From: Bryoerythrophyllum caledonicum
Taxonomy: Eukaryota > Streptophyta > Bryopsida > Pottiales > Pottiaceae
Reading direction: 5' to 3'
DNA: 64,000 bases
Assembly (NCBI GenBank): GCA_963971425.1
Contig: OZ020517.1
Coordinates: 21,462,462-21,526,461, forward strand
The notes beneath the pieces are model-generated. The model was given only the letters and a program-made list of their open reading frames with translations, did no database searches and had not been told where the DNA came from. The position numbers were made by a program, and so were the translations under genes. This document shows, piece by piece, positions 17,902 to 64,000 of the stretch. Positions within the stretch are counted from its first letter, which is position 1; each line of letters opens with the position of its first letter.

Positions 17902-18009
17902 GATGTCGAAGAATCCCGAAACTTCACCTAGACTCGCCCCTGCAACTGCAATAGAAACCAAACAACTCACACTCAAAACACACTCCACAAGAACAAGGAC
18001 GACTCCAAA

Positions 18010-19982: not shown

Positions 19983-20501
19983 CTAATCTGAGTCGGAGCT
20001 AGAGCCATCGTCTTTCTTCTCCACCTTCTCCTCCTGCTTGATGTCCACGGTGGCCAATTTCATAAGATGGTCGAAGGCGCCGGCGCCGTTCTCCCGGATG
20101 TAGGCCGCGACAGCCGCCTGCGCGTCGGGGCTAATGGACCCGAGCCACTTGCGCTGCTGGTCGGTGAGCTTCTGGTCGGTCAAACCCGTGGCCGCGTTCA
20201 GATACGGGCGCACGCACTTCTCATACAGGATAATCCCGCCGCGGAACTGCGGGAGGACGAGCCACGACGCGATGAGGAGCTTGACTGTGCCGTAGAACGG
20301 GATCCACGCGATCACGCGCCATGCCGCCAGCTCCAAGAGGGAAACCAGCGAGTACAGCACCCAGTACGTGAGCCACTGCTGATCGTCCTCCTTGTAGGGG
20401 CTCTCGATCGCCATGATCGACGCGTAGAGCGGGTACAGAAGCATCATCACCGGGCCCGAGAGCGCGTAAATCCGCAGCGCCGCTGCCCATAACCACCCCA
20501 T
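19983..20501 (-). CDS. HVA22/TB2/DP1-family ER membrane protein, tandem paralogue (172 aa)
   Basis: It starts at MGWLWAAALRIYALSGPVMM and shares most of the core with the 17.4-kb gene: LLYPLYASIMAIESPYKEDD, then QQWLTYWVLYSLVSLLELA, FYGTVKLLIASWLVLPQFRG and GIILYEKCVRPY. The tail differs, ending in a charged KQEEKVEKKDDGSSSDSD that could be a phosphorylation or binding site. Same strand, same length and about 2 kb apart, so the pair is a tandem duplication. It is intronless in the CDS and GC-rich. The role is as for the neighbour: shaping ER tubules, possibly under stress control. Confidence 0.93.
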   Translation of the reverse strand: MGWLWAAALRIYALSGPVMMLLYPLYASIMAIESPYKEDDQQWLTYWVLYSLVSLLELAAWRVIAWIPFYGTVKLLIASWLVLPQFRGGIILYEKCVRPYLNAATGLTDQKLTDQQRKWLGSISPDAQAAVAAYIRENGAGAFDHLMKLATVDIKQEEKVEKKDDGSSSDSD

Positions 20502-21000
20502 CGCGACAAAACCCTACAAAGTTTTCCTTCCTGTTACCTGTGCTGCTATCGAGCGCGTTACTGGCGCAAATGCAAACAACGGTGAAGTACCGGAGCGAGC
20601 AGTGGAGAAGCAGATTGCTAGTGAAGACCAGTCTGTAGAAGCAGGAAAGCGATCGAGGGAAAGGAGGAGGTGCTCACACGAGGCCGCAGGCGACCATTAC
20701 GAAGGAGGCCGCGGTGCCAAACCCCGTTACGGGACCCCAAAAACCCACACGACTACCTTCATAGACTTCAAGACGGCAGAACTAGTTCTCACGTTGTTTA
20801 TGGGACACGAAAAGCCGTTATTTCAGAACCCGGAACGTTCTGGACATTGGTTTCCAAAGCCGTTACTGCGCCGAAAGCCGACTAGGTTTTAAGGAATGCG
20901 TAGTTTTGGAGGGTGCGAGTTCTAGGAAGTGTAGATGATAATTCAGTGATGGTTCTAGGTACGGTGGTGGGTTTTGGGGTTCGGAGTCCGGAGGTTAGGT
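20502..21000 (-). promoter_or_regulatory. Probable leader/promoter of the second HVA22-like gene
   Basis: The GC content stays high up to about 20.9 kb and then drops sharply, as expected for a 5' leader and core promoter. A clear TATA box or intron could not be assigned. Confidence 0.3.
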
Positions 21001-28478: not shown

Positions 28479-29211
28479 AGTTATTCTTTGAGGATGTACT
28501 ACGTATACTTGTTTTAGTGTATGTTTTTTGTTTATTTGATATTGGTTAGGACTCTTGATTTGTTGTGGTTATTGATCTTTCTATACACAATACGGAGTTC
28601 TTTATATATTTATTGTTTTAAAGTTGTTTTATAAATATTCCAATGTTATTTTCTAGTGATTGTTTAGGTATTACACAATTATTGAATAGTTATTATGATA
28701 ATTTTTTAGTTATTATCATCATGATTCATTAGTTTTTACACAGTGATTACCGAGTTCTTTAATACTTTTTAAATCATTATTGAATAGGTGTATTGTAGAT
28801 GTTGTATAGTTAATTTCCAGATATAGTTTGGCTATTAAGCAATTATTTTTGAGTTGATAAGACCTAATTATTAGTTATTAAATAAGTGATTGTGGAGTAA
28901 ATATCTAGTAATTACATAGTTACTTGCTAGTGATTACATAGTGATAAGGAGTTATTTTGAAGTGAATTTATTAGTTATTTAATACTTATGTAAAAGGCTT
29001 GGGTACACGATATGCGCCCAAAAACCCATACATGCATAGTGATTTGTTTACAAGTACTATAGTAAATTATTAGTGATGTATTGTCTGGTTCAACAAAAAG
29101 CTCCAAAGTCCAAGTCGGAACAAAGTACCAAACTTCTTACCAATACCAAAAAATACATGCCTAATGAAAAACTAACCTTCAATTATGATTGAGCTTCAAG
29201 ACTTGGGTATC

Positions 29212-29430
29212 TCAAAGTGCATTTCCACCAATAGCATCACCAACCTTGTATTGATCAGTGTCGAAATTTGCGTGGATGAGGTCCACATTTGCAGTGAATA
29301 CACCTTTCATGCCCACATTTTTTGAAATATTTTTATTGTGCCACTCGTGTTCCTCTGAGATGTTGCTAACCCTGGCCCAAGCCACTTTCTCCCGCTTGTT
29401 TATTGGATTCATAAGAGTTGCCAAATCTCC
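29212..29430 (-). pseudogene. Exon piece resembling plant Transposase_24 (CACTA/Spm-associated)
   Basis: After an acceptor (AATTCCATCAG) the - strand reads GDLATLMNPINKREKVAWAR, then NVGMKGVFTANVDLIHANFD and QYKVGDAIGGNAL, then a stop. The pattern (LxNPxNxxxxVAxAxV .. GxxxVxVDxIxxxxxL .. VGDAIGxxxxW) recalls the Ptta/En/Spm or Transposase_24 family carried by plant CACTA elements, but the end is truncated. It has an identical twin bar one residue at 60.6 kb. Confidence 0.4.
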
Positions 29431-29520
29431 CTGATGGAATTGCTAGAACACCAAACACAATTGCAATTGAACAATTCATGCAGAAGATTACAATACAATG
29501 ACTATATATTTATAACATTG

Positions 29521-29628
29521 TAGAAGAAGAACGCCGGTTCCCAAAGGAGACGAGCGTGAATATAGTGTTTGTTTGTTCCACTACTAAGACCATGTCCATC
29601 GGACAAGGAATTAGTAAGCTGGAACTAC
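29521..29628 (-). mobile_element. LINE 3' end, 5'-truncated
   Basis: GAAGAAGAACGCCGGTTCCC and what follows matches base for base the 3' tip of the LINE at 60.94 kb and is close to that of the LINE ending at 59.9 kb. Only the last ~108 bp are present. Confidence 0.85.
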
Positions 29629-34580: not shown

Positions 34581-34827
34581 GTACCCTCTCGTTTCCAAGA
34601 GGGTACATCACATCAATTCCATAAAAACTAATATTTTGTAGAACGCTGAGGGTAAAAATGAGCAACTATACTCTCGAACACCGCAAGGATATATTTCTAA
34701 TAATAGGTATAATGCTTTGTCGGGAGACAATATAATGGTAACGATTATAGATATTCCTCATTTAAAATTATTTCAGTATAGTCTCTGAAAATGACAATCA
34801 AGTACCCTCTCGGAAACAAGAGCGTAC
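34581..34827. repeat. Inverted pair of GTACCCTCTC hairpins
   Basis: 34581-34606 has arms GTACCCTCTC / AAGAGGGTAC around GTTTCC. 34802-34827 has GTACCCTCTC / AAGAGCGTAC around GGAAAC. The second is the reverse complement of the first apart from one or two bases, so two hairpins face each other 220 bp apart. The same inverted pair with the same GAGCGTAC variant is found at 50.29 and 50.45 kb. Confidence 0.8.
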
Positions 34828-34861
34828 GCATTACAAAAATAATAGAAGTAGGTATTCTATT

Positions 34862-36325
34862 CTAAACTCCAGAATGTGCCAGAATGCCACTTTCAAGGAC
34901 TAGTTTCACCTCGTTGAAGCTGAAAGAGGGTGCATGAATGAAGAAGTGGACGTCGGGTTGAAGTTTATAAATCTTCAAGAATATGAAGTACAGATGCTTG
35001 CAATATGTGAACGGACTCCGTCCACGAAATTCGTTCATGGTCTTCGTAAAGGCTCGACATGTACAGTGGGGAAACGTGCTCACCGTGATCGTATATGATG
35101 TCTCATGAGGGGGGCTATGCGAGTTTAGTGTGATGATGCACCCAAAGCCAGGCTGAGGAACCATGCGCACCGAAGTAATTGATGCAGTGAGGAGTTCGGC
35201 TGATCCCATTGACCATCTTTGATTCGTATTGGGCTTGGCGGAAGAGCGCTTTAAATTCTTTCCACTCCTTTTCGCAGGATACTTGTCAGGATGGTCAGGG
35301 ACGGAAACGGAGTTCAGGTCCAATGGTAGACTACCTGTTGAGAAGAGGCGCCTCGGGGATATTGGTTCCTTCTGAGGGAGTTGAAATCCGGCTAGTTGTA
35401 AGTCTACAATCTCACCGTGAGTGAGATTCGTGCCAATCATAACAGGCCAAACTTCTGGAATAGGAGGCTTTTCCCCGCACACCCATGGACGTCTTAGACC
35501 CTTCACACAACGGTTGATATCATCGTTGCACAAGTAGAAGTCAGTGTCTTCATAGGTGCTCTTTGCTCTACATTCGAATTTGCCAGTGTAGGTAGATGTA
35601 GGAGTTGGCTTTCCTCGTCCCACAATCCTCTCCATGCATTTCTTTCTAGCTCCCCCACGTTGCGCCCAACATTTCTTAGCCGAGTTTGTCGGCACACGAG
35701 CAATATGCCACTGGGTTAGATTGGCATGGGTCTCTTGAACTGCCGTTACAGGGCGAATTCCAGCCCTGCACACTAGAGACGCAGTCGGGATTGGATTCGG
35801 CGGTTGTGATGGTGAAACCTCGTCATGGGAAAGACCATCATCTTCGTCAATAATGGGCAAAGGAATTGACGAAGACCGAAGTCGTCTAGAGGAGTATCGG
35901 GGATGGGAATAGTTTACCCTATCGGGACGATGTGATTCGTCATCGGCTCCAAGAGGTAAATTTGCTTTGCGCTTGTGTGTGCCAAACACCTCCGCGCCTT
36001 GCATATAAGAATCACGCGTGCAAAATTCATCTGCCCCCGGCATATCCATCATAGAATCCCCTAGAACGCGTGGATCGCCCGTCTTTTGGGCTTTTCGTTC
36101 GGCAGCACGAAGCTTCAACTCTTCTTTGCTCAGACCTGTCCCTCCAGCACTACCTTTCAAAAATTGATAATAATTAACTACCTGAAGAAAGGCCCGAACA
36201 TAATCGTCTGCGATTGCGACATACAAATCTCCACCGTTATTGCCCGAAGCTTGCTTCCATTTGTTGTGGATGGATTCAGCAAGATTACAAGAGGGCATTT
36301 CCGCGAGTTCATCTTCGGACATGCT
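34862..36325 (-). CDS. Mutator-like transposase gene, 3' exon with SWIM zinc finger
   Basis: This exon resumes after an acceptor (TGTATACAG) and starts SMSEDELAEMPSCNLAESIH NKWKQASG, the usual MULE text after the catalytic core. A long basic linker follows, then HCTCRAFTK and SPFTYCKHLYFIFLKIYKL near 34960-35060, which is the CxCx(n)CxH SWIM zinc finger found at the C-terminus of MuDR-type and FAR1-type proteins. Intron 36326-36403 (GTATTT..ATACAG, 78 bp) has no stop and so hides in the open frame. Confidence 0.75.
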   Translation of the reverse strand, partial: SMSEDELAEMPSCNLAESIHNKWKQASGNNGGDLYVAIADDYVRAFLQVVNYYQFLKGSAGGTGLSKEELKLRAAERKAQKTGDPRVLGDSMMDMPGADEFCTRDSYMQGAEVFGTHKRKANLPLGADDESHRPDRVNYSHPRYSSRRLRSSSIPLPIIDEDDGLSHDEVSPSQPPNPIPTASLVCRAGIRPVTAVQETHANLTQWHIARVPTNSAKKCWAQRGGARKKCMERIVGRGKPTPTSTYTGKFECRAKSTYEDTDFYLCNDDINRCVKGLRRPWVCGEKPPIPEVWPVMIGTNLTHGEIVDLQLAGFQLPQKEPISPRRLFSTGSLPLDLNSVSVPDHPDKYPAKRSGKNLKRSSAKPNTNQRWSMGSAELLTASITSVRMVPQPGFGCIITLNSHSPPHETSYTITVSTFPHCTCRAFTKTMNEFRGRSPFTYCKHLYFIFLKIYKLQPDVHFFIHAPSFSFNEVKLVLESGILAHSGV

Positions 36326-36403
36326 CTGTATACAAACAAGCACGTTTATAAGTGAAACTATAAATGAAAGCACCGAAAATTTACATAAACAATGAAGAAA
36401 TAC

Positions 36404-38574
36404 TTGAGTCATGAATCCACCCCATTGTCGATAACGGAAGTGCCAGAATGCCAACCATAGATCAAGGTGTTGAAATCCACTTTCTGACACTCCCCCGACG
36501 AAGCCCACCATGCACGAATAGATTGGTATAATCTATCAGCCTCTTCCATTGTGCTTGCCTTCATGTACTGGTGGCACAGTGCCTTGTGTTGCTCTCGTAA
36601 AGGTCCTTCCGTGATGAACTTGTCAGAATGCTTCACCTTTGATTGTGCCCAGTGGAATTGGCACGTGCGTTCTTTATCGACCATCACTTCGTCCTTGTTG
36701 CCGCTACCATAAATAATCGGAACAACATTCCAATTAGCTTGGGCACTGTCTGCCATGAAACCTTTGAACTGAGGTGATGGAAGTCCATATCGAGCCATTA
36801 CAGCGTTGAGATTTTTCCAGAATAACATCTGCGCTGCCGCATCCTCCGATTGCATATCGCAGCATGCAATGCTTATGACACGACAATAGGTGGCGTCATA
36901 CACATGACATGCCATAGTTGTCCACTGCTTCACATGTTTAACATGATCAAACATCAACCATGCGTGTTCCAGGTCACCGCCTTTTTGCATACGCTTCACC
37001 AATTCCACGCCAGAGCCCGGTCCAACTTCTGACATCTTAAAGACAAATACCTTTTCTGAATCATCACCATGTCCTCGAAACATGTTCTTCTGAATAAATG
37101 CCCAATTGCTCAGTCCCCGTAACCTCGTGATGCTATCTAATACGCCATACTTCTTAAGGTATCGGAAAGAGACCACTTTGTTGCGAATACTTGGAGATCC
37201 CATGTCCTTGCACTTATCTAACATTGGAACTAACTCCTCAAAACTAAATTGTCTCTCTGGATTGTCCTCTTCGCGCAGCAAGAACTCTCCCACGAGGTCC
37301 TTACTCGCCTCTAAAACTATTGAACTTTTAGTAGCAAGAGGGGTTCTTTGAATTTGATCACTAATTAAGGAGTTGATACGCTCCTTGACATCCCGATAAT
37401 CCCCTACTCTTATGGGATGGTTGTATGACCCTAGATGAATACAAGCACATGTGATATTGTGCTTGCTCGAAACATAATAAACTATAGCAGGGCATGGTGC
37501 AAGACATGACGGAGGCATGCGACATATTTTGCAGACCAATGTCGAGCCCATGGGAGGTACCTCACCTGGAGTGAATGGATGCGGCGTAACTCCTTCGAAT
37601 TCTGTAACATTAAACGGTGTCGTTCGAAGGTCTCTTCGAAGAAATTCACAATCAAGATTGTTGCATCGTAGGTGCCCGACACACTTGGAAGTCCGAAAAT
37701 GTAGTCCGTCGTCATTGATGATATTCGTTGTGATAGTCTTCGTCCACACGTGTCCATCGTATCTCTTGTCCATACCATGCATGAACTTTGTTTGTGTAGA
37801 TGACGCCGACGGTTGCGTAGGAGGAAGCTCAAAAATAACATCGCCATTAAATTGGTGGAGAAGATAGTCCACTTTCACATGGCGCATTCTATCAAAATCT
37901 AGAAGTTTCAAGGGATTCTTACAACCTGGACGTTGACGCAGCTGTCTCAAGCACGATAAAACACTAAATACAGAGGAGCCCATTGAACGATCAGGAGGGC
38001 ATGACAGTGGTGTACGAGATGTAGGAGGATACGATGTCGGTGTGGTAGTCCTAGGTGGACACGATATAGGAGTGGTAACCGGAGGGGGACAAGACGATGG
38101 GGTAGAATACTTTAGCTGACAACTTGTCTGAGAGCGGGACTCATCATCCGAGGACAGGATCACTACGCTCTCCGTACCAGGTTCAACCTTGACTCTAACT
38201 CCAGCTGAGAGTGGAGTGTGCATGCTGCATGACGATGATCTATGATGAGTGTGGACATGGGATGGGGTAGAGATTGCAGACTCTAAGAGTCCATATACCC
38301 GATACTGTTCTAGGGAAAGTTTCCACATTCTCTGCGATCCCACGTCCAAAACGTGCTGCATAGCGATAGTATGAGTAAGCTCCGAGGTTGCCTCGTCGTA
38401 GACTTCTTCCTCAATGTAGATACTGTCCTGCAAGAAAGAGAATCTGAGACTCAATAACAAGGAAGTCACCGATGCAACGCCGTCACTATCTAAACGACAA
38501 GTAAGTGGCACACCTACGCCACTGGCACGAAGGAAGACAAGTGAAGACGTTGGAGATTGAGATGAAGAAGCCAT
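36404..38574 (-). pseudogene. Mutator-like transposase gene, 5' exon with GCM-like zinc motif and DDE core
   Basis: It starts at MASSSQSPTSSLVFLRASG (ATG at 38574). In order, it has a Ser/Thr/Pro-rich region with repeats of SCPPxTTTP; a GCM-like zinc motif (TKTITTNIINDDGLHF, then SKCVGHLRCNNLDCEFLRR); a further Cys/His cluster (VCKICRMPPSC..HNITCACIHLG); and the MULE core DATYCRVISIACCDMQSEDA, FKGFMADSAQANWN, RTCQFHWAQSKVKHSDKFI, ending in WLAFWHFRYRQWGGFM. One -1 type frameshift lies near 36490 between WWASSGE and SESGFQ. With that break it is probably a recently dead copy. Terminal inverted repeats were not located. Confidence 0.75.
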
Positions 38575-39107
38575 GACAAGGGAATGAGAGAATGTGAGTG
38601 TGTGTAATACAAGCGAAATTGGTTGGCTCAAATACTGACCTTGGCAGTGTTGTGGCAAGATTAAACAAATTAAAAGAGTTTGTAGAGAACGGCGCACGCA
38701 TAAAATTAGAGAGAACTGTAAATACAATTTTGGAGAATAGTCATTCTAATGCAATGGAATTAGTAGATGGCGTGATATATATATAAAGTTTAGCAACGAG
38801 GCATAGCCTAAATACTGCACGATTTGAATTGTTTAATAGAAGTGGGTGGTGAAAGTTGTGGGGTAGTGTCAGATAATTCAACCACAGATTAGAGTCCTAT
38901 TAAAGAAGGCCGCCGTCTTGACGTAAATTTGACTAAAACTAGTGTATGGAGCGTTGTGCTTTTTAGAGCGGCCAAGTTGTATTCGGCGCACGATATCTAC
39001 ACCCGAGGCAAGGAGAAAGGCTGTAAATCGCGTGCCAAGAGTTTGGAAGACTACACTATAATGCTAATGCTAGGAACGAGTTGTAGAGGAATGTCCATTT
39101 AGATCAG
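38575..39107. other. Intergenic DNA between Mutator-like gene and gene 2
   Basis: This probably holds the 5' flank of both divergent genes. No coding text or clear element end was seen. Confidence 0.4.
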
Positions 39108-41880: not shown

Positions 41881-42086
41881 GTAACCATACAAACAACCGT
41901 TAATCATCATTATTGAATGTAATATTGAATCAAATTAGTCAATAAATAGTTCTAATAGTTTACAACAAACTAGGACCCATAGTACATTATTAGGCTTTCA
42001 ATTAGACTACTAGGCTTTATCTGAAACGAATTCCACGTTTAGTGAACTGCCGGGACCACCCCTTGCTAACATCCACTTCGATCCTG

Positions 42087-43017
42087 TGAGGGTACCCAGA
42101 GTCGCCCGAGTACCACCAGGAGTACCCTCTCGTAACGAGAGGGTACTCTCAGTGGTACCCGGGCGACTCCGGGTACCCTCTCGGAACCGCGGGGGGACCA
42201 ATCCGAGGAGTCCCCCTCCGGTCCCGAGAGGGCACCCGGCGTCGCCTGGGTACTACTTGGTGTACCCTCTCGTTACGAGAGGGTACTCCTGGTGGTATTA
42301 GGGTGACACTAAGTACCCTCTTAGGATCGGCTGGATGACTTTGTATAATATTACCTAGTTCCGAGAGGGTACCTGGCGTCACCCGGATACTACTGGGAGT
42401 ACCCTCTCGTAACAAGAGGGTACTTTACGTGGGATTCGGGTGACGCCGGGTACCCTCTCGAAATTGGATGTGACAATTTCACGTCATCGTTGCTGAAATT
42501 TAAGTGGGTCTCTATTGTCTACCGGGTATCATCGAACATACCCTCTCGTTACGAGAGGGTATGCTGAGTGGTACCAGGGCTACTCCCGGTACCCTCTCTG
42601 AATGGAGAGAGGTCCACTTGTTCGAGTCTCTTTTTGATCCTCAGAGGGTACCTTGTGTCACCCGGGTACCACCGGGAGTACCCTCTCGTTACGAGAAGGT
42701 ACTCTCAATATTACGCGGGCGACACCGGGTTCCCTTTTGGGATTAGTGGGGGACTCGACCGGGTGGACCCCCCTCGCATTTGAGAGGGTGCTCGGTGTCG
42801 CCCGGGTACAGCTGATAGTACCCTCTCGTTACGAGAGGGTACTGTCGGTGTTACTCGGTCGACGCCGGGTACCTTCACGGGATCGTGAAAAGACCACCTA
42901 GACGAGTCCCCTTCGATTCCGAGAGGGTACCCGGCGTGGACTGGGTACCACCCAGCATACCCTCTCGTTACGAGAGGGTATGCTGGGTGGTACCCAGTCC
43001 ACGCCGGGTATCACCAA
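42087..43017. repeat. Array of seven long hairpins, ~139-bp period, in a gene 2 intron
   Basis: Seven palindromes are centred near 42135, 42272, 42411, 42550, 42690, 42830 and 42969, giving spacings of 137-140 bp. Each has the core TACCCTCTCG / CGAGAGGGTA around TTA or TAA and outer arms with GGTAC and CCCGG text. The last (about 42929-43009) has roughly 39 base pairs per arm with no mismatch. Units differ in sequence (AGTACCC / GGGTACT against CATACCC / GGGTATG) yet remain self-complementary. The intron is bounded by GAG|GTAACC (41881) and AACGAAACAG (43190). Confidence 0.9.
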
Positions 43018-43190
43018 TGTGCCTAGAGAACATCTAATCGTATTGTCTGGATCCGAGTATTAGCTGCTTGTGACGTCCGAAAATTTACTTCTCTTAATAT
43101 GACTTTAATATTTTTCTTTTTTCGTTGGTGGAGTGACATAGTTATAAACAAGACAGTACTAATCTTGTGTTCATTTGAATAACGAAACAG

Positions 43191-48224: not shown

Positions 48225-48361
48225 GTGAGTTTCAGGAGTTGCACTTTGTGGTCTTGAAAATCTTGTTTTTTGTTGTAATCTTGTTCGCCGTTGTTTTTTT
48301 TTTTTTTTGGTGGTTTGCGGCATTGTCTTTGGAGATGCATCTTTGCCATGGAGTTCGATGA

Positions 48362-48387
48362 GTACCCTCTCGTTTCCGAGAGGGTAC
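48362..48387. repeat. GTACCCTCTC hairpin in gene 3 intron
   Basis: Arms GTACCCTCTC / GAGAGGGTAC, ten perfect pairs, around GTTTCC. It is the same hairpin as at 34581 and the core of the gene 2 array. Confidence 0.85.
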
Positions 48388-48407
48388 ACATTGAAGCTCC
48401 AGAACAA

Positions 48408-48568
48408 GTGCTCTTGACGCAACTCCGTCGATGGAGTTGCATCCAAAGCATGGCTTGCCCTGAATGCAACGCCATTGACGGAGTTGCTTCGAGAACGCCT
48501 GCCCTAGAACTCATGGAAGTTCCAGGGCAAGCATCCCGAATGCACTCCGTCAGTGGAGTTGCATCCAG
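48408..48568. repeat. TTGCATCC/GGATGCAA palindrome array, left part
   Basis: Repeats of GGAGTTGCATCCA and TGCCCTGAATGCAA alternate in both orientations (for example GATGGAGTTGCATCCAAAGC then CTTGCCCTGAATGCAACGCC). The array is cut at CAG 48566-48568 by the CACTA element and resumes at 49848. Confidence 0.75.
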
Positions 48569-49847
48569 CACTATAAGAAACCCGTGTTTTTTGTGACAGG
48601 GCAAGTAACGTGCAATTATGTTTTGTGCAGCATTCGGCACGTCAACGTTGACGTCCAAAAAAATCCGTTATAATTGACATGCGAAAAATATGCCAAAATC
48701 TCAAAAAACAGGCCCACGTTTTTTAAAACGTCACAAAAACTTGGGGGTTGAAGGTGTTAAAAATCTGCCATGTGGCTGCCACGTCGCGTCCACGTCATCG
48801 CCACATGGACGGGCAGTGCCACATCCCCAACTTTTTCATCCGGGCCCTTGGTAATGTGGCCCATGATGTGGCACATGACGTGGCATACGATTGTGACTAG
48901 GCTTGCATACGTGGACCCGCCATTTTATGACGTGGCACCTTTAAAATATGACGTGTCACTTTTTTAAATATGACGTGGCATGACCAATCAGCATAGTTTA
49001 ATACAATAATTAATTGTGGACAGTGTAAATTGGGACGTCATTTCTAACGCGGAATGTTTTTTGTGACATTCGTTGTGACGTTTTCTGTGACGTTCATTGA
49101 GATGGAGGTCACCAAAAGCAAGTGCCATGTCACCAAAAAGAAGCGCCATGTCATCAAAAAGTACCGTATCACTTTAAGTTTCAAGGGTAATTCAAATTCA
49201 TCCAAATAGATGGATGAAAGTGAATCACTCTTGATTCAAGTGTGATGAGATAGGAGAGAAGGCCTTACATATATATACAATGGGATGCACAAGTGGTGAC
49301 AATCCATATGGGATTATTGGATTTGTCATGGTGTTAGCCTCGTGTTAGCATAAACATTAAAATGTCACAGTAGACGTCCATCCGGACGTCTGTTCCAACA
49401 TCCTCTTTGCCTACGTGGCTCAAACATGTTTTTTGTGATGTCAGTAACGACATCCACGTTTTTTGTGATGTCAGTAACTACATCCACGTTTTTATTTTTG
49501 TAGGGGTCAGCCGATCTCCACTGTGTTTTAACCGTTGGGTAGTGTTTTACGGGAGGTTGCAGTAACAATCTCGAAATTACTCACAGTGAAGCTGAAACCC
49601 CCCTGTCGACGTGGCATTGTCACCTTTCTGAGGACGTTGTCTAAAACATGACTATGTTCACTAGGACGTCCCACAAAACAAATACGTTTATACTAACATC
49701 TCTGCGTTTTTCCGCCAATTTTTCCATGTTTGGTGCAACATCCACCAGAATCCGAGAGCCCAAGGCTCGGCCCGTTCGCAAAAACATGTTTTGAAAAACA
49801 CACTTGATCACAGCTAACGTCACAAAAATCACGGGTTTCTTATAGTG
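48569..49847. mobile_element. Non-autonomous CACTA (En/Spm) element, 1,279 bp
   Basis: The ends are CACTATAAGAAACCCGTG and its inverted copy, the canonical CACTA terminus of plant En/Spm elements. The 3-bp target duplication CAG flanks it (48566-48568 and 49848-49850). The interior has no transposase; it holds repeated TTTTTTGTGATGTCAGTAAC and GTGACGTTN-type subterminal motifs in both orientations. It inserted into the middle of a palindrome array, so it is younger than the array. Confidence 0.93.
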
Positions 49848-50430
49848 CAGGGCAAGCCATTCCTTGGATGCAAGTCTATGGAGTTGCATCCAGGGCATGC
49901 CTTTCCCTGAATGCAACTCCATTGACGGAGTTGCTTCAAGAGCGCTTGCCTTGGAAGTCATGGAAGTTCCAGGGCAAGCGCCCTGAAAGCAAGTCCATGG
50001 AGTTGCATCCACGGCATGGCTTGCCCTGGATCCAACTCCCTGGACTTGCTTTCAGGGCGCTTGCCCTGGATGCAACTCCTTGGAGTTGGATTCTGGGCAC
50101 GGCTTGCCCTGGAGGCAACTCCATGAACTTGCATCCAAGGCATGGCTTGCCCTGGATGCAACTCCATGGAGTTGCATTTTTGGCAAGCACCTCGAATGCC
50201 ACTCCAAGAAGTTGCATTCAGGGCATGGCTTGCCCTGAATGCAACTTCATTGTCAGTGTTGTTTTCGGGATGTTTGCCCTGGATCTTAGTTGAGTACCTT
50301 CTCGTTTCCGAGAGGGTACTTACTGTACCTCCAAAGCATGGGCCTGGAGAAACTGTCAATGTTGTTGCATTCAGGGCATTGCTTGCCCTGAATGCAACCT
50401 CAGTGATACAGTTTCTCCACGACTCTTGAC
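49848..50430. repeat. TTGCATCC/GGATGCAA palindrome array, right part
   Basis: About a dozen units of 35-42 bp alternate GGAGTTGCATCCAGGGCA and its complement, giving two kinds of dyad centre (ACTCCATGGAGT and GGCATGGCTTGCC). Substitutions are often matched on the partner arm. The array ends near GAATGCAACCTCAGTG at 50405. Confidence 0.8.
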
Positions 50431-50471
50431 CTGTAGCTACAGTGAGTACCCTCTCGGAAACGAGAGCGTAC
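50294..50471. repeat. Inverted pair of GTACCCTCTC hairpins at the end of the gene 3 intron array
   Basis: 50294-50319 has arms GTACCTTCTC / GAGAGGGTAC around GTTTCC. 50446-50471 has GTACCCTCTC / GAGAGCGTAC around GGAAAC. The pair faces each other, as at 34.58 and 34.80 kb, and the right member carries the same GAGCGTAC variant. Confidence 0.8.
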
Positions 50472-50601
50472 TCTCTCATTCATTGCAATCACCTTGGATG
50501 TGACTCTTGTTATTTCTTTTTAATTTCAAAGTTTCTGTTCAGTTCCTAATTGTTTTGAGTTCTCATAGTGCTGAACTGTCTCTAATGTTTTTGTTTGTCA
50601 G

Positions 50602-51146: not shown

Positions 51147-52512
51147 TCTTAGTGCCAAGTTAGAGTGAATTTTGACATTCCATTTTTGTTTACTGGTTTC
51201 AGAACTTCATATTTTTTATAACGGCTTTTTATTTTTCGTTAACAATGACGTCAGCACTTTTTTTTGCACTCAGTTCTTTTGATAATAGTTCACGATGACA
51301 TCAGCCCTAATTTTTATATAGTAACCGAAAAAAAAAATATTGGCCTATATAAAGATTTTTTTTTAAAAAGACCACGGTAATAGGGCCCCTTTAATGCAAT
51401 TTGTGCACATGGAATGTATGATTCTCCGGTCTCTTTTTCTGCTCACCGCTCTCCGCTCACATACGAGCTTTTTCCCACCTCCTACTCTCATAGTACACCT
51501 CGCCCATCCTCCCATCTCTTGCTATTTTCTCCCCAGTCTCCTAGTATACTTCCTATCCACACTAACGTACACATTTCCACTCACCTCACCATACTACAAT
51601 ACTATAGTCGAGACCTCCTATAGTATAGTAAATTTTGTTCACCTTCCACCCTACATTTGTTTTTATTACAAGTTTATACTACCCTATTCACTAAGATACA
51701 TGTTGTCAAATATTTCTACTACTATACCAATATCTATCTCCTCCCATACATATTGCACTATCCCATTCTATATCTTACTAAACATCTATTGCCTAAATAC
51801 CTTGAATAGAGTAGTTATATTCCTCTTATCTCTAAAACCTCAAATTGCTATTAGACACTTTATTGACTACATATTTGCTACAAACACATCTAGAAACGAA
51901 CTAAGAGAGGCACATATTACTCACAATCTATGGATTAATGTACACCTCCACTGTTTAGGCTATTACACTACAATTACGTACATGTATGCCTATTACAAAA
52001 ACTCTTGTAACACACACTTCCTTCGGGAGAATACATACCAACCACATAAACCACAGATCAATACAAAACAAACACATAGAATCTGGAAAGATATCTCTAC
52101 TTCAAACATATACAATACAAACAAAAAATCATACCACTCCACATTTACCAACAACATACAACCACTTACATCTCCTTTGCTACAAACAAATCCCTCTACA
52201 AACAAAAACAAAAAAATATATACACATAAACATGCACAATGACATACAAGAACCTACCAACCCAAAATACCACATACACAAATACACCACAAATACATAC
52301 AACATTCGAGATAATTGCACCATAACCACTAAAACAATAATGAACATAACAAATAACAAAAAATTTACTATCCACATACAAAACACAAACATCCACCCCC
52401 CCAAAACAAAAAAGAAGATAATAACACAATAAAGTTCCAAAAAAATACACAAATTACAAACACTTTAAAATACAACACTAAACACACATATCACAAATTA
52501 CTACTACTCCTA

Positions 52513-52542
52513 GGAGGAGACATCGAAACCAACCCAGGACCC
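52513..52542 (+). other. 2A-like ribosome-skipping motif (GGDIETNPGP)
   Basis: In the frame of the ORF that follows, the codons read LLLLLGGDIETNPGP and then Met at 52543. D-x-E-x-N-P-G-P preceded by a Leu-rich helix is the full 2A consensus, at which ribosomes release the upstream chain at Gly-Pro and go on translating. The same frame is open for about 50 codons upstream (from 52357). So in the intact ancestor the upstream part and the endonuclease/RT part may have been made from one frame and separated here. Confidence 0.8.
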
Positions 52543-53151
52543 ATGCCTAATATATTAAAAAGACACCCTACATCACAGAAGAAAAATGCCAAAATATACT
52601 TCATACCGAACATCATAAAACTCCAACCGAAATACACACACATTACAAAATCCTTCGCACCTCTCCTCAAAAACACACATATACTACACCATATACAAAA
52701 CACTATATACCCAAACATTGCCCAATACATACAACAACAAAATATGCACCCACGACCTCACATCCTATATGCCCTAGTAGTCACTACTCATCCACACATA
52801 AATGAATGCAACCATCTCCTAAATCCACAAAACTTAGACACAATCACATGGACAAATACACTACTACAAACCCTACTAAACTTACAAAACCCACCAGAAA
52901 GACATATTCACACTACGCACCCTTATATAAAGTTCCTTGAAGACAACCAAAACATTATAAACCATGAGAACTCAATACACAAGACCCTATATGACTTCTT
53001 ACATAGTCAACTCACGCCTCCCTCTAATGAAACAATAAAACTCAAATTCCCTTACCTCCCTAACAAACTTATCAACGAACTACAAAAATGCCTAGACCCT
53101 ATACCAGAATACACTCGCCCACCACCACCACCTCCCTACATCCCCCCATAA
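52543..53151 (+). CDS. LINE A segment between 2A and endonuclease
   Basis: 202 codons begin MPNILKRHPTSQKKNAKIYF and end in EYTRPPPPPPYIPP. The text is helical with many Asn, Ile, Thr and His codons forced by the A/C-rich composition. No domain is recognised. It is in the same frame as the endonuclease, separated from it by a stop and about 90 bp. Confidence 0.6.
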   Translation: MPNILKRHPTSQKKNAKIYFIPNIIKLQPKYTHITKSFAPLLKNTHILHHIQNTIYPNIAQYIQQQNMHPRPHILYALVVTTHPHINECNHLLNPQNLDTITWTNTLLQTLLNLQNPPERHIHTTHPYIKFLEDNQNIINHENSIHKTLYDFLHSQLTPPSNETIKLKFPYLPNKLINELQKCLDPIPEYTRPPPPPPYIPP

Positions 53152-55960: not shown

Positions 55961-58140
55961 ATGATTGATACAGTACTACGCCGAGGTGTGGCATACAGTT
56001 TCTATGGTGTACCATGCTCTATGCCTGCTATCAAAAAACTTGATAAAAAAATAATAGCCGTACAAAAAACCGTATGTGGATTACCAAAATGTATGTCAAA
56101 TGCAATAACCCAACTCCTACATAACTTATTTGGGCTAGAAGCTTTCTCCCTCAAAAACGCATACCTCCGATGTATAGGTGAACAACTACAAAATGCCTTA
56201 AATGATACAGGAAGACTTGGAAAAATATATTATGGACTAACTCATTATGTCCTTGCCCAATTTGGTGGCGCCAGAAACATACCAAGAATTAAAACAAGTG
56301 ACAGCATAAGATCACCGATAACAAGAACATTCTTCTTATTAAAACACATAGCTAAAGTCCACCTCAAAAGTACACTTCCAAACTTCCTCATTAATCCTAC
56401 ACCACAAGAAATGTTATGGCGCCAAGAAATACTAAATCACAACACACTCAATGCTAATCTCTCCCAAAAACTTCTTAAAAAACTCCTCACAAAAAACATC
56501 TATGAACTGAAACAAATCACTCTACCTAACGGCACACACATCATGAAGGATGAGGATTTCAAAGCCCACCACTTCACCCCATCCAAACTAGTAAAGAGTG
56601 CTCTAAATATTGCTAAACAATTTTTTTGCCACCCAACATGCCCCACCACATGCCAGACCCCTTGTAACATACACCCATCCTCCTATATACTTCAAGATTC
56701 ATACATCACCATCAACAACAACATCACTCCTAGAAATATTCCCCTACCAATCTTCCCCTCTAACCCCCCACATCCGCACCATCCCCGGCCCCCAACATAC
56801 ATCCTCAAAAGCCCTACCACATATCCCATTAATAACATCATACACCATAAACATATCCAACACACATAAAAAATAATATACAAAATACCTACACAAAATA
56901 CCTATGCCAATGGCAACACAATGATAATACATACAACAAATGGCTTCCCCAAAGAGCCCTTTTTCCACGACACGACACCAATACCTCCACGCACAACATC
57001 GAAAAATTAAAACAATACTACCAAAAAGCTCAAAACAAAATCTACTCGGACATCATCTAAGCCCACCACCCCCAAGAACAATTCCCAGACTCAAGATCTG
57101 TAACACCACCCATAATTATCCCACTCTTAAAAATCCAAACATTAGAATGTAACCCCGAAAATGATATCCTTACATTCTCAAATACAATGGATAACAATCA
57201 AGCACATCTATATAAAATGGATAACAATCAAGCACATCTATATGAAGAAAATGGCCGACATTTACACACTATCCCCATTACTCGACTCCAATGGCTATGA
57301 AACCAATACAGTACTAAACTACAAACTCCTACTAACATTGAACCAACGACCCAACCCTTTGAAACCGAACTAATTTGGCTATACCAAAGGTATAAATACC
57401 GAATACCTAAAAAAAACCCTCTCAAAAATGCGCAATACACAATATCCACCCCCATTTTAAACTCACTAATCTCATCCTTTAACATCGAACAATCATACTT
57501 TTCTTCCCTGGTCACATGTTCTACCAAACTAAAAAAATTCTACTTACCCTTTGAAAGGGACAAAATATTCGGATCCTTGGGAAAAGCCTATGACAACAAA
57601 TGGACCGGTAAAGGAATAGCTCACCCCCACAACAAGAAGGAAATGGAACAAGCAGTACATTGGGCCCGACTTGCTTCCAAACATGACCCGCATAACACAG
57701 GTACAATCATCATCACACCAAACAACAATTGGTACCAAAACAACAACCAATACTCAGACCCATTTCCAGACTCCCATATCATTGCAATATTTGAGGCAGA
57801 CTCAATACCATACGAAGAACCTACGATCCCACCCGAGCTAAAAAAACCCCGAATCGAGCTATCTACATTACAAATACTATATATCCACCACCAGAACCAA
57901 ACCATTGGCACCCTAGAGCAATTTGCTGAACTTACCTCCATATCGGACAATTTAAACATACGCCGATTATACACAAAATTGGCCCCACCAACACCGATAC
58001 AAATCCCCGTAAACCGAAGCAAAAACTGGTCAAAACTGGTCAAAACTAAAATATGTCAACAATACACTAAACTACTTTGTCACACCCCCCCTCTTCCAAA
58101 CTATCCAACTCATACCACACCAAAATTTAACCCCAACACA
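55961..58140 (+). pseudogene. LINE A region between RT and RNase H
   Basis: The open frame 55961-56869 continues the thumb/connection (MIDTVLRRGVAYSFYGVPCS, LLHNLFGLEAFSLKNAYLRC). Beyond it, 56.9-58.1 kb contains shorter frames with no known domain (for example KFYLPFERDKIFGSLGKAYD in 57.54-58.14). A 33-bp direct repeat (ATGGATAACAATCAAGCACA TCTATATAA) lies at about 57187-57245. Confidence 0.55.
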
Positions 58141-58146
58141 TAGCTA

Positions 58147-58759
58147 TTACACCGATGGCTCCTTTAAACCACGAGAACAAATTAGCCCAGGATCTTGGCG
58201 CAGAGAAAAAGCTGGCTATGGCATTTATGATTCTACCAAGGAAATTAAGCTGGCCAAAAGACTCCATGGACTACAAAATATCCTTAGAGCAGAACTCATG
58301 GCCATTCACAAAACACTACAAGTCATCACAACAAAATACAATAATGAACCCGCACATATATTCACCGATTGTATAAATGCACTCTACCTACTAAACACCC
58401 AAATAACACACCCTACTCTTCACAATAGTCACCCCGACCAAACCATATTAATGTCAATGGTCCAAATGTTACAAAATCGAACACAAATCACAACCCTCCA
58501 CAAAGTAAGAGCCCATGCCAATATTGATGGCAACGAACAAGCAGACAAACTAGCAAAAGAGGCCGAGAAAAAGCACACAAAAATGCCAAAGACTCACACG
58601 AACATGCCCATGCCACCCCATACTACTTTCAAAAAGAAGATTGGCCTTCCAAAGAAGACACCCCCGACAAAGGCCCGATCAAATTTCTGGGCAAATATCT
58701 CAAAAAACAAGACCTCTACAACAACCTTGATACAATCTCAGATAACTTCCCTAACATAG
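58147..58759 (+). pseudogene. LINE A RNase H domain
   Basis: HSYYTDGSFKPREQ carries the first Asp, ILRAELMAIHKTL the Glu, AHIFTDCINALYLL the second Asp, and KVRAHANIDGNEQADKLAKE the His/Asp end. This is the complete DEDD set of a type I RNase H, in one frame from the first Asp to the end. It would remove the RNA strand during second-strand synthesis. The same domain is found in LINE B with near-identical text. Confidence 0.85.
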
Positions 58760-58799
58760 AAAAATGGACTAACAACAACGACATAGACAATGAACTCTC

Positions 58800-59608
58800 T
58801 ACAAATTTTTGGAAAAAACCCATCATAACCGATTCACAAATCACATGCCTTATCAAATTCCGCACCGGTCAATACATGGGAAATGCTCGCAAACAACTCT
58901 TCTTTGGAATAGAAAGATTCCCATCCATAACATGCCCCATATGCTCTTCAACGGACCCCGACACATGGCTTCATGTTCTTCTCAAATGCCAAAACCACCA
59001 CATACACTCTCTAATTGTTAAAAGACATAATAAAGTGATATGGGAAGTCCGAAAACTAATCACCTCCTACAATAAATCGAGATGTTTTATAACTAATGAA
59101 CGCTGGCACTTTTAATAACAATCCACAAGAAAATACGGTCCCCCCTTGGCTACTCTCATGTTCATGTATGACTCAAAGATGTCATTGCAACGCTAGGCTC
59201 AAACCGGACATCCTTTGTGTTAAAGGTATACCATATAATGACCCACCACCCAATAACATCAACCAAGACTACACCATTCAATTCATTGAATTCACATATT
59301 GCAACGATAGATTTTCCCCCAAAACAATTCAAAATAAAATAGATAAATACCAACCCCTTATTGACGACATCATTGCCCTCGGATGGAAGGTGGACCCCTT
59401 GATTGTAATCACATCTGGCGCTCGTGCCACCACCTTTATCCCATCTATGAAAACTCTAGAAGATACATTCAAAATTCCCATTGAAACAATCAAAAACACC
59501 TTTCAAAACATCAACACCATCGCTACTCAATATGCCATGTCCATTTTACTACATAAACGCAAAATTGAAAACAACCAAGCCCTTCCCGATACACAAGACC
59601 CCCCTTAA
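58800..59608 (+). pseudogene. LINE A zinc knuckle and PD-(D/E)XK-like C-terminal domain
   Basis: SFPSITCPICSSTDPDTWLH then VLLKC (58932-58989) is a CCHC knuckle of the kind next to restriction-like endonucleases. After a short break, RLKPDILCVKGIPYN (about 59195), FIEFTYCND (59278) and KIDKYQPLIDDIIALGWKVD (59338) form a PD..ExT..K pattern typical of PD-(D/E)XK nucleases; VITSGARATTFIPSM fits the last strand. The ORF ends at TAA 59606-59608. Having both AP-type and restriction-like endonucleases is known from Dualen/RandI LINEs; here the assignment is by eye only. Confidence 0.6.
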
Positions 59609-59898
59609 TTTCTTTCCCCCGCTTCGATTTGTTTTGATTGGTTGGTATTGTGGTTCTTGGCTACTCGCTTGGTTGGTTTGTGGTTTCTGGCTACTTGCTT
59701 GATTAGTTGGATGTTTAGTTGGTTGGGTGTTTTGCTTGGCGGACTTCTAGCTACCCGTTACATAGTGTCTACCCTCGAAAGGGGGAAGTAGTTCCAACTT
59801 ATTAATTCCTTGTCCGGTGGGCATGGTCTTAGTAGTGGAACAAACAGACACTATATTCACGCCGGTCCCCTTCCGGGAGCCGGCGTTCTTCTTCTTCT

Positions 59899-61048
59899 AG
59901 TTATTCTTTGAGGATGTACTACGTATACTTGTTTTAGTGTATGTTTTTTGTTTATTTGATATTGGTTAGGACTCTTGATTTGTTGTGGTTATTGATCTTT
60001 CTATACACAATACGGAGTTCTTTATATATTTATTGTTTTAAAGTTGTTTTATAAATATTCCAATGTTATTTTCTAGTGATTGTTTAGGTATTACACAATT
60101 ATTCAATAGTTATTATGATAATTTTTTAGTTATTATCATCATGATTCATTAGTTTTTACACAGTGATTACCGAGTTCTTTAATACTTTTTAAATCATTAT
60201 TGAATAGGTGTATTGTAGATGTTGTATAGTTAATTTCCAGATATAGTTTGGCTATTAAGCAGTTATTTTTGAGTTGATAAGACCTAATTATTAGTTATTA
60301 AATAAGTGATTGTGGAGTAAATATCTAGTAATTACATAGTTACTTGCTAGTGATTACATAGTGATAAGGAGTTATTTTGAAGTGAATTTATTAGTTATTT
60401 AATACTTATGTAAAAGGCTTGGGTACACGATATGCGCCCAAAAACCCATACATGCATAGTGATTTGTTTACAAGTACTATAGTAAATTATTAGTGATGTA
60501 TTGTCTGGTTCAACAAAAAGCTCCAAAGTCCAAGTCGGAACAAAGTACCAAACTTCTTACCAATACCAAAAAATACATGCCTAATGAAAAACTAACCTTC
60601 AATTATGATTGAGCTTCAAGACTTGGGTATCTCAAAGTGCATTTCCACCAATAGCATCACCAACCTTGTATTGATCAGTGTCGAAATTTGCGTGGATGAG
60701 GTCCACATTTGCAGTGAATACACCTTTCATGCCCACATTTTTTGAAATATTTTTATTGTGCCACTCGTGTTCCTCTGGGATGTTGCTAACCCTGGCCCAA
60801 GCCACTTTCTCCCGCTTGTTTATTGGATTCATAAGAGTTGCCAAATCTCCCTGATGGAATTGCTAGAACACCAAACACAATTGCAATTAAACAATTCATG
60901 CAAAAGATTACAATACAATGACTATATATTTATAACATTGTAGAAGAAGAACGCCGGTTCCCAAAGGAGACGAGCGTGAATATAGTGTTTGTTTGTTCCA
61001 CTACTAAGACCATGTCCATCGGACAAGGAATTAGTAAGCTGGAACTAC
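59899..61048. repeat. 1,150-bp duplicated block, copy 2
   Basis: It is the same as 28479-29628 in length and order with about five base changes. It starts directly at the (CTT)n tail of LINE A and ends inside LINE B, so it is bracketed by two LINE 3' ends. Confidence 0.95.
60632..60850 (-). pseudogene. Exon piece resembling plant Transposase_24, copy 2
   Basis: Identical to the - strand exon at 29212-29430 except Ser to Pro (VSNIPEEHEW). It has the same acceptor and the same stop. It is too short to be functional alone. Confidence 0.4.
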
Positions 61049-61196
61049 TTGCCCCTTTCGAGGGTAGACACTATGTAACGGGTAGCGAGAAACCAACCAA
61101 GCAAACAACCAACCGACCAACCAACCAACTAACCAAGCAAGTAGCCAAAAAACCACAAAACCAACCAATCAAGATAAATCAAGGCGCAAGGAGTAT

Positions 61197-62117
61197 TTAA
61201 GGGGAGTCTTGTGTATCGGGAAGGGCTTGGTTGTTTTCAATTTTGCGTTTATGTAGTAAAATGGACATAGCATATTGAATAGCGATGGTGTTAATGTTTT
61301 TAAAGGTGGTTTTAATTGTTTTGATGGGTATTTTGAAGGTAACTTCTAGAGTTTTCATAGATGGGATAAAGGTGGTGGCACAAGCACCAAATGTGATTAC
61401 AATAAAGGGGTCCACCTTCCATCTAAGGGCAATGATGTCGTCAATGAGGGGTTGGTATTTATCTATTTTGTTTTGAATTGTTTCCGGGAAAAATCTATCG
61501 TTGCAATATGTAAATTCAAAGAATTGAATGGTGTAGTCTTGGTTAATGTGATCAAGTGGTGGATCATTATATGGTAAACCTCTAACACAAAGTATGTCCG
61601 GTTTTAACCTAGCATTGCAATGACAACGTTGAGTCTCACATGAACATGGGAGTAACCAAGGAGGGACCGTATTTTCTTGTGGCTTGTTATTAAAGGTGTC
61701 GGCCTTCATTAATATAAAACATCTCGATTTGTTGTAGGAGGTGATTAGTTTTCGGACTTCCCATATCACTTTATTATGTCTTTTAACAATTAGAGAGTGT
61801 ATGTGGTGGTTTTGGCATTTGAGAAGAACATGAAGCCATGTGTCGGGGTCCGTTGAAGAGCATATGGGGCATGTTATGGATGGGAATCTTTCTATTCCAA
61901 AGAAGAGTTGTTTGCGAGCATTTCCCATATATTGACCAGTACGGAATTTGATGAGGCATTTCATTTGTGAGTCTGAAATGATGGGGTTTTTCCAAAAATT
62001 TGTAAAGAGTTCATTGTCTATGTTGTTATTGTTAGTCCATTTTTCTATGTTGTGAATATTTTCTGAGATTGTGTCAAGGTTGTTGAAGAGGTCTTGCTTT
62101 TTGAGATATTTGCCCAA
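61197..62117 (-). CDS. LINE B zinc knuckle and PD-(D/E)XK-like domain (306 codons open)
   Basis: The frame reads MGKYLKKQDLFNNLDTISEN, then CLIKFRTGQYMGNARKQLFF, CPICSSTDPDTWLHVLLKC, RLKPDILCVRGLPYNDPP, IQFFEFTYCNDRFFPETIQN and KIDKYQPLIDDIIALRWKVD, ending ALPDTQDSP. It shows the true continuous order of RNase H end, knuckle and nuclease-like domain. PD, E-x-T and K are all kept, so the family was recently under selection for this domain. Confidence 0.65.
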   Translation of the reverse strand: MGKYLKKQDLFNNLDTISENIHNIEKWTNNNNIDNELFTNFWKNPIISDSQMKCLIKFRTGQYMGNARKQLFFGIERFPSITCPICSSTDPDTWLHVLLKCQNHHIHSLIVKRHNKVIWEVRKLITSYNKSRCFILMKADTFNNKPQENTVPPWLLPCSCETQRCHCNARLKPDILCVRGLPYNDPPLDHINQDYTIQFFEFTYCNDRFFPETIQNKIDKYQPLIDDIIALRWKVDPFIVITFGACATTFIPSMKTLEVTFKIPIKTIKTTFKNINTIAIQYAMSILLHKRKIENNQALPDTQDSP

Positions 62118-62121
62118 AAAT

Positions 62122-62750
62122 CTAATCGGGCCTTTGTCGGAGATATCTTCTTTGGAAGGCTAATCTTCTTTTTGAAAGTAGTATGGGATAGCATGGGCAT
62201 GTTCGTGTGGGTCTTTGGCCTTTTCGTGTTTTTTCTCGGCCTTCTTTTGCTAATATATTTGCTTGTTCGTTGCCATCAATATTGGCATGGGCTCTCACTT
62301 TGTGGAGGGTTGTGATTTGTGTTCGATTTTGTAACATTTGGACCATTGACATTAATATGGTTTGGTTGGGGTGGCTATTGTGAAGAGTAGGGTGTGATAT
62401 TTGAGTGTTTAGTAGGTAGAGTGCATTTATACAATCGGTGAATATATGTGCGGGTTCATTATTGTATTTTGTTGTGATGACTTGTAGTGTTTTGTGAATG
62501 GCCATGAGTTCTGCTCTAAGGATATTTTGTAGTCCATGGAGTCTTTTGGCTAGCTTAATTTCCTTGGTAGAATTATAAATGCCATAGCCAGCTTTTTCTC
62601 TGCGCCAAGATCCTGGGCTAATTTGTTCTCGTGGTTTAAAGGAGCCATCGGTGTAATAGCTATGTGTAGGGTTAAATTTTGGTGTGGTATGAGTTGGATA
62701 GTTTGAGAGAGGGGGCGGTGTGACAAAGTAGTTTGATGTATTGTTGACAT
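62122..62750 (-). pseudogene. LINE B RNase H domain
   Basis: MAIHKTLQVITTKYNNEPAH followed by IFTDCINALYLLNTQ and KVRAHANIDGNEQA match LINE A closely. HSYYTDGSF, which holds the first Asp, lies upstream near 62660, in another frame from the following text. Compared with LINE A, the end of the domain (ILAKEGREKTRKGQR) has shifted frame. Confidence 0.75.
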
Positions 62751-64000
62751 AGTTTAGTTTTGACCAGTTTTGACCAGTTTTTGCTTCGGTTTACGGGGAT
62801 TTGTATCGGTGTTGGTGGGGTCAATTTTGTGTATAATCGGCGTATGTTTAAATTGTCTGTTATGGAGGTAAGTTCAACAAGTTGTTCTAGGGTGCCAAGG
62901 GTTTGATTTTGATGATGGACACATAGTATTTGTAATGTAGATGGCTCTATTCAGGGTTTTCTTAGCTGAGATGGAATAGTAGGTTCTTCGTATGGTATTG
63001 CCTCAAATATTTCCATATCTGCCTCAAATAATGCAATGATATGGGAATCTGGAAATGGATTTGAGTGTTGGTTACTGTTTTGGTACCAATTGTTGTTCGG
63101 TGTGATTATGATTGTGTTTGTGTTATTTGGATCATGTTTGGCGGCAAGTCGAGCCCAATGTACTGCTTGTTCCATTTCCTTCTCGTTGTGGGGGTGAGCT
63201 ATACCATTACCGATCCATTTGTAGTCAAAGCCCTTTCCCAAGGATCCAAATATTTTGTCTCTGTCATAGGGTGAGTAGAATTTTTTTAGTTTGGTAGAAC
63301 ATGTGACCGGGGAAGAAAAGTATGATTGTTCGATGTTAAAGGATGAGATTAGTGAGTCTAAAATGGGAGTGGGTATTGTGTATTGCGCATTTTTGAGGGG
63401 GTCATTTTTTGGTATTCGGTATTTATATCTTTGGTATAGCCAAATTAATTCGGTTTCAAAGGGTTGGGTCGTTGGTTCGATGTTTGTAGGAGTTTGTAGT
63501 TTTGTATGGTATTGATTCCATAGCCATTGGAGTCGCGTAATGGGGATAGTGTGTAAATGTTGGCCATTTTTTTCATATAGATGTGCTTGATTGTTATTTA
63601 TTTTTATTGTGTTCGCGAGTGTAAGTATATCATTTTCGGGATTGCATTCTATTGCATAGATATTTAAGAGTGGAATAATTATGGGTGGTGTTACGGATCT
63701 TGAGTCTGATAATTATTCTTGGGGGTGGTGGTTTTGGATGATATCCGAGTACGTTATGTTTTGAGCTTTTTGGTAGTATTGTTTTAAATTTTCAATGTTA
63801 AGTGTGGAGGTTTTGGTGTCGTGACGTGGGAGAAGGTCTCTTTGGGGAAGCCATTTATTGTATGTATTCTTGTTGTGTTGCCATTGGCATAAATATTTTG
63901 TATAGGTATTTTGTATATTATTTGTGTCTGTGTGTTGTATATGTTTATGGTGTGAGATGTTATTAATGGGATATGTGGTAGGGTTTTTGGGATATATGTT

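What the first reader, a model, noticed from the sequence alone, without database searches (positions are those of the whole stretch)
42087..43017. Seven intronic hairpins phased at ~139 bp
Centres at about 42135, 42272, 42411, 42550, 42690, 42830 and 42969 give spacings of 137-140 bp. Each unit is an 80-95 bp palindrome, the last with about 39 perfect pairs per arm. Units have diverged from each other but within each unit the arms match, so arms are corrected against each other faster than units are copied. The period is slightly below one nucleosome repeat. In RNA this intron would fold into seven long stems.
Basis: seen in the sequence. Interest (0 to 1): 0.88.

Follow-up and report, generated by a model that had tools for sequence, protein, structure and literature searches.

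The report
Intronic tandem array of decaying palindromes
A eukaryotic intron holds seven tandem copies of a roughly 139-base palindromic repeat whose short hairpin tip also turns up at five other places nearby, which looks like decaying repeat DNA and not a row of stems kept perfect by repair.

Summary
The array is real: seven dyads, 42134 to 42969, spacings 137-140, in a predicted phase-0 intron, 41881-43190; folding z -30.

In units 1-6 an arm matches its own partner no better than another unit's partner (30.3 against 30.5 of 41). Only unit 7 is perfect (41/41), and the array ends at its outer edge, which suggests one recent fold-back copy. Seven separate stems are possible, but the minimum-energy fold pairs unit 1 with 2 and 4 with 6.

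Two things were missed. The inner 11 bases of the arms hardly vary (2 of 154 letters changed, against 81 of 350 mid-arm). The same 11-bp stem with a 4-nt loop recurs at 34581, 34802, 48362, 50294 and 50446, three of them in or beside a second palindromic array.

Best reading: a nuclear palindromic repeat, like MITE- or foldback-derived satellites and selfish hairpin elements in kind, amplified in tandem and decaying around a conserved tip. No relative was found in the collections searched; the window's own genome is not held.

The parts
41881..43190 (+). predicted phase-0 spliceosomal intron that holds the array
   Evidence: GT...AG; exons open in frame 0 on both sides; no transcript data
42040..43011 (.). 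seven-unit palindromic tandem array, period 137-140 bp
42087..42182 (.). unit 1, dyad 42134, 36/41 arm match, loop base A
42226..42322 (.). unit 2, dyad 42274, 27/41 arm match
42363..42459 (.). unit 3, dyad 42411, 32/41 arm match, loop base A
42502..42598 (.). unit 4, dyad 42550, 26/41 arm match, the most diverged
42642..42738 (.). unit 5, dyad 42690, 30/41 arm match
42782..42878 (.). unit 6, dyad 42830, 31/41 arm match
42928..43010 (.). unit 7, dyad 42969, perfect palindrome 41/41; right end of the array
   Evidence: DNA hairpin -56.5 kcal/mol, z -17.5
42179..42228 (.). linker with second dyad at 42204
34581..34606 (+). dispersed core hairpin, loop TTTC, 1 mismatch to the 26-bp pattern
34802..34827 (-). 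dispersed core hairpin, inverted (loop GAAA on +), 2 mismatches; folds no better than many shuffles (z -1.1)
48362..48387 (+). dispersed core hairpin, loop TTTC, exact match to the pattern, at the left of the second palindromic array
50294..50319 (+). dispersed core hairpin, loop TTTC, 1 mismatch
50446..50471 (-). dispersed core hairpin, inverted (loop GAAA on +), 1 mismatch, at the right of the second array

Best explanation
A palindromic, satellite-like repeat of selfish or neutral origin. A repeat of about 139 bp, built from a hairpin with the 11-bp stem GTACCCTCTCG, was amplified in tandem inside an intron and has since decayed unit by unit. The hairpin core is a dispersed nuclear family: its copies elsewhere in the window share the core, while their flanks differ from this array. 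Shown: array, phasing, independent decay of arms in units 1-6, slow change of the core, dispersed copies. Inferred: that the copies spread as a mobile or template-switch-generated hairpin; that unit 7's perfect right arm was made by one recent fold-back (template-switch) copy of its left arm; that the core stays constant because a protein recognises it or because short-tract conversion acts at the hairpin tip. The array is probably carried passively by the gene, though its transcript could form long double strands.
For: Within-unit arm match equals between-unit match for units 1-6. Units near each other are no more alike than distant ones (direct mean 0.73 for neighbours, 0.77 for the single pair six apart). 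Core 2/154 changed letters, mid-arm 81/350, outer word 21/161; 5 of 100000 random sets of 11 columns are as constant. CpG letters in the core changed 1 of 28, elsewhere 44 of 140 (Fisher p 0.002; 22 of 98 and p 0.025 without three ambiguous columns). Five further core hairpins in the window, none in 100 shuffles. Unit 7 is 41/41 and the array stops at the edge of that palindrome.
Against: No target-site duplication or outer terminal inverted repeat found around the array. No copy of the unit outside the window in any collection searched, though none of these holds eukaryote genomes as such. Linkers are so diverged that only 3 of 21 pairs exceed the 95% point of shuffled linkers. One of the five dispersed hairpins folds weakly. 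The fold-back event in unit 7 rests on one unit and no relative.
Confidence: 0.6

Rival explanations
1. One reading: within-unit arm correction keeps each hairpin perfect while units diverge.
For: Unit 7 is 41/41. Both arms of units 4 and 7 share a CA variant. With all seven units the inner 12 bases give 4.8% of permutations as good.
Against: Units 1-6 show no excess of own-partner matching by identity, RNA pairs or energy.
Confidence: 0.12
2. A selected RNA: the intron makes long hairpins that are processed to small RNAs (microRNA or hairpin-siRNA cluster).
For: Very stable folding on both strands (-669.7 plus, -621.7 minus).
Against: No covariation in units 1-6. Changes on the transcribed strand that keep a G-U wobble (C to T, 33) do not significantly exceed those that break a pair (G to A, 23; p 0.23). 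No Rfam match at gathering threshold.
Confidence: 0.12
3. A non-autonomous DNA transposon of foldback type inserted as a whole, with the array as its internally repetitive inverted ends.
For: Whole array is nearly its own reverse complement (inverted pairs I1-I13). Core hairpins lie in inverted pairs at 34581/34802 and 50294/50446.
Against: No target-site duplication, no outer inverted repeat of 7 or more bases in 90 bp on each side.
Confidence: 0.2
4. Organelle-type selfish palindromes that reached the nucleus.
For: Stem, loop length of 3-4 nt and loop inversions resemble the palindromic repeats of Volvox organelles (PMC2670323, passages read).
Against: The organelle genomes of this species are not known here; the phased 139-bp tandem order is not described in the passages that I read.
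Confidence: 0.06

Closest known systems
Tetris foldback transposon and TIR-220 satellite of Drosophila virilis (PMC4079207; abstract and one results section read)
   Same: Tandem repeats tied to inverted-repeat DNA, amplified into satellite-like arrays.
   Different: Tetris copies have 8-10-bp target-site duplications and long TIRs; here no duplication and no outer TIR was found, and the unit itself is a palindrome.
MITE-derived satellites in other eukaryotes (review PMC9659126; passages read)
   Same: Short non-coding inverted-repeat units turned into tandem arrays.
   Different: No parent MITE identified here.
Short palindromic repeats of Volvox carteri organelles, with copies in nuclear DNA (PMC2670323; passages read)
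   Same: Dispersed hairpins with a shared core, loops of 3-5 nt in both orientations, in introns and intergenic DNA.
   Different: Core sequence differs as far as the passages show; here nuclear-type introns and a phased tandem array.
Repetitive hairpin-forming elements of sponge mitochondria (PMC2800124; passages read)
   Same: Conserved stem with variable loop, sometimes tandem.
   Different: Mitochondrial; stems of about 10-18 bp, no 139-bp phasing in the passages read.
Dyad-symmetric satellites of Tribolium (PMC13081366; passages read)
   Same: Satellite monomers that contain a long palindrome.
   Different: About 600-bp dyads in megabase (peri)centromeric arrays; here under 1 kb in an intron.

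Membership tests
Palindromic tandem (satellite-like) array | Head-to-tail copies with constant period | tested here: met
   7 copies, spacing 137-140
Palindromic tandem (satellite-like) array | Each unit has dyad symmetry beyond chance | tested here: met
   26-41 of 41 arm positions match; z -30 for the array
Satellite DNA proper | Many arrays across the genome | not testable with these tools
   No genome held for the window
MITE / foldback transposon | Target-site duplication at the ends | tested here: not met
   Only two unrelated 6-mers shared between 90 bp left and right, neither at the edges
MITE / foldback transposon | Outer terminal inverted repeats | tested here: not met
   No inverted match of 7-14 bases between the flanks examined
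MITE / foldback transposon | Dispersed copies | tested here: inconclusive
   The core hairpin is dispersed, five copies; the 139-bp unit is not seen elsewhere in the window
Selfish hairpin element (organelle type) | Dispersed hairpins sharing a stem, differing in flanks | tested here: met
   one of five folds weakly
Selfish hairpin element (organelle type) | Copies in the organelle genomes | not testable with these tools
   Species and organelle genomes not available
microRNA / hairpin-RNA cluster | Stem kept by covariation | tested here: not met
   Own-partner pairing no better than permuted in units 1-6
microRNA / hairpin-RNA cluster | Small RNAs from the stems | not testable with these tools
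   No reads available

The most novel reading that the evidence does not exclude
The core hairpin is a mobile nuclear 'seed': a hairpin of about 26 bp that spreads through introns and intergenic DNA by fold-back copying or by a protein that recognises its tip, and that sets off tandem palindrome arrays where it lands. The near-constancy of the inner 11 bases against strong decay of the rest of the arms, and its presence at the edges of a second, unrelated palindromic array, would be its marks.
Probability: 0.15. Interest if true: 0.7.

Novelty: new member of a known kind. Interest (0 to 1): 0.38.

Why it matters
It corrects an attractive claim: a row of hairpins in an intron can be old, independently decaying repeat DNA, with only the last unit recently made perfect. 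If the dispersed core is a mobile hairpin family, its copies would let one test directly whether template switching or a tip-binding protein builds palindromic arrays in nuclear genomes.

Tried and rejected
Rejected: general arm-to-arm correction; selection for RNA pairing; higher-order or neighbour homogenisation (no decline of similarity with distance); a known RNA family (none at gathering threshold); a plain insertion with target-site duplication.

Methylation decay: a first count seemed to show CHG and CpG enrichment of C-to-T and G-to-A changes. It used a consensus that I had typed and that differs from the computed one in one column. Recounted with the computed consensus, C-to-T and G-to-A make up 56 of 104 changes, but the CpG plus CHG excess over other C/G sites is not significant (p 0.063; 0.42 without three ambiguous columns). 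(strand counts) and 52 used the same typed consensus; the strand counts are superseded, and the core-CpG test came out the same. A control on two LINE copies shows only a mild CpG excess and is unpolarised.

Led nowhere: pattern scans of viral contigs and of prokaryote genomes, blastn against phages, protein scans for the LINE and HVA22-like proteins in viral contigs (16 and 1 stretches matched a pattern, none confirmed). A literature search for the literal 11-base word gave 4 papers, seen as a listing only, none on repeats by title. A search on Chara braunii, a guess at the taxon from memory, gave nothing that I used. The species remains unidentified.

Full report
Observation. The window is eukaryotic in look (introns, LINE elements, an HVA22-family protein by Pfam), and no genome is held for it. 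The array has seven dyads at 42134, 42274, 42411, 42550, 42690, 42830 and 42969, spaced 140, 137, 139, 140, 140 and 139. The repeat finder gives the same seven copies at 65-80% identity to the first. Folding is far beyond chance (z -30.4, 0 of 20 shuffles). The exons on both sides are open in frame 0 with a GT donor and an AG acceptor, so the array lies in a predicted intron, 41881-43190; no transcript data exist here.

Arm matching. Comparing left arm i with right arm j over 41 positions, the own-partner values are 36, 27, 32, 26, 30, 31 and 41. For units 1-6 the mean within a unit is 30.3 and between units 30.5; 67% of permutations do as well. With G-U pairs allowed it is 34.5 against 34.4 on the plus strand (49% of permutations) and 33.2 against 32.8 on the minus strand (26%), and by folding energy -61.5 against -60.7 (35%). 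So in six of seven units the stem is no better than shared ancestry gives. With unit 7 in, the figures against my reading are 12% of permutations over 41 positions and 4.8% over the inner 12, and 10%, 3.8% and 5.1% for plus-strand pairs, minus-strand pairs and energy. A CA variant is shared by both arms of units 4 and 7 only, so at least one earlier event put the same change on both arms, or the two units share an ancestor.

Unit 7. Its arms match at 41 of 41 positions and similarity to the repeat ends at the edge of that palindrome. One fold-back copy of the left arm would give both facts. This is inference: template switching at imperfect inverted repeats is known to make arms identical and to invert spacers (PMC8604942, abstract and outline read). 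Units 1 and 3 carry A where the others carry T at the centre, which a spacer inversion or a single change would explain equally well.

The conserved tip. Columns 1-11 from the centre hold 2 changes in 154 letters, columns 12-36 hold 81 in 350, columns 37-48 hold 21 in 161; 5 of 100000 random sets of 11 columns are as constant. This control ignores that the 11 columns are neighbours. CpG letters changed 1 of 28 in the core and 44 of 140 elsewhere (p 0.002; without three ambiguous columns 22 of 98, p 0.025). Linkers are nearly saturated: 3 of 21 pairs clearly exceed the 95% point of shuffles. So constancy is centred on the dyad.

Dispersed copies. The pattern GTACCCTCTCG-NNNN-CGAGAGGGTAC with up to 3 mismatches has six matches and none in 100 shuffles: one is a 3-mismatch match inside the array, and five are elsewhere (34581, 34802, 48362, 50294, 50446). 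Three read TTTC and two GAAA in the loop, as inverted copies would. Four of the five fold well beyond shuffles as DNA (z -4.4 to -8.8); the one at 34797-34832 does not (z -1.1, 31 of 200 shuffles as good). A profile of the whole unit finds the same five, four of them above and one below its inclusion threshold, matched over the tip only. The last three lie in or beside a second array of another palindrome (period about 43, 49980-50250), itself apparently in an intron (48225-50601, read by eye) and split by a 1.28-kb element.

RNA folding. The minimum-energy fold (-669.7) puts 92 pairs between units 1 and 2 and 89 between 4 and 6; units 3, 5 and 7 fold mostly alone. With spans of at most 105 nt, seven local stems form (-579.6). 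Both are predictions.

Change spectrum. Of 104 changes from the arm consensus, 64 are transitions; C to T is 33 and G to A 23 on the plus strand (p 0.23); the CpG plus CHG excess is not significant (p 0.063, or 0.42 without three ambiguous columns). An earlier count that looked stronger rested on a mistyped consensus column.

Comparison. In kind this is a palindromic tandem array plus a dispersed hairpin. MITE- and foldback-derived satellites (PMC9659126 passages; PMC4079207 abstract and one section; Galileo, PMC3573991, abstract and outline) and selfish hairpins in organelles (PMC2670323 and PMC2800124, passages) are the closest that I saw. The defining ends of a MITE or foldback element were looked for and not found, so I do not file it there. 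No copy was found in viral contigs, prokaryote genomes or phages, collections that would not be expected to hold a eukaryote's repeat. I make no claim that the repeat is absent from print beyond the searches.

Verdict. Real, ordinary in kind, with one unexplained feature (the constant tip) that deserves a genome-wide look.

Noticed in passing
48395-48568 and 49848-50290: Second palindromic array (period about 43 bp, unit like GCCCTGGATGCAACTCCATGGAGTTGCATTCAGGGC), apparently in another intron, with core hairpins at both sides.
   Followed up: partly
48569-49847: Element of 1.28 kb with inverted ends starting CACTATAAGAAACCCGTG and CAG on both sides, splitting that array; the name CACTA (En/Spm) type is recalled, not searched.
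   Followed up: no
52357-53151: ORF upstream of LINE ORFs contains GDIETNPGP, which fits the 2A peptide motif as I recall it; Pfam finds endonuclease (weak) and RNase H in the ORFs downstream.
   Followed up: no
56794-59904 and 60932-64000; 28479-29628 and 59899-61048: Inverted LINE copies at 89% identity, and a 1150-bp stretch repeated at 99.6% identity.
   Followed up: no
17386-18081 and 19983-20513, minus strand: Two related ORFs; the first matches TB2_DP1_HVA22 in Pfam, and the DNA of the two is 76% identical over 394 bp.
   Followed up: no
34862-38745, minus strand: Large ORFs that look like a transposase with a SWIM-like CxC...CxH stretch (by eye); no Pfam match at E 0.01. Two core hairpins lie just beyond its stop.
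   Followed up: no
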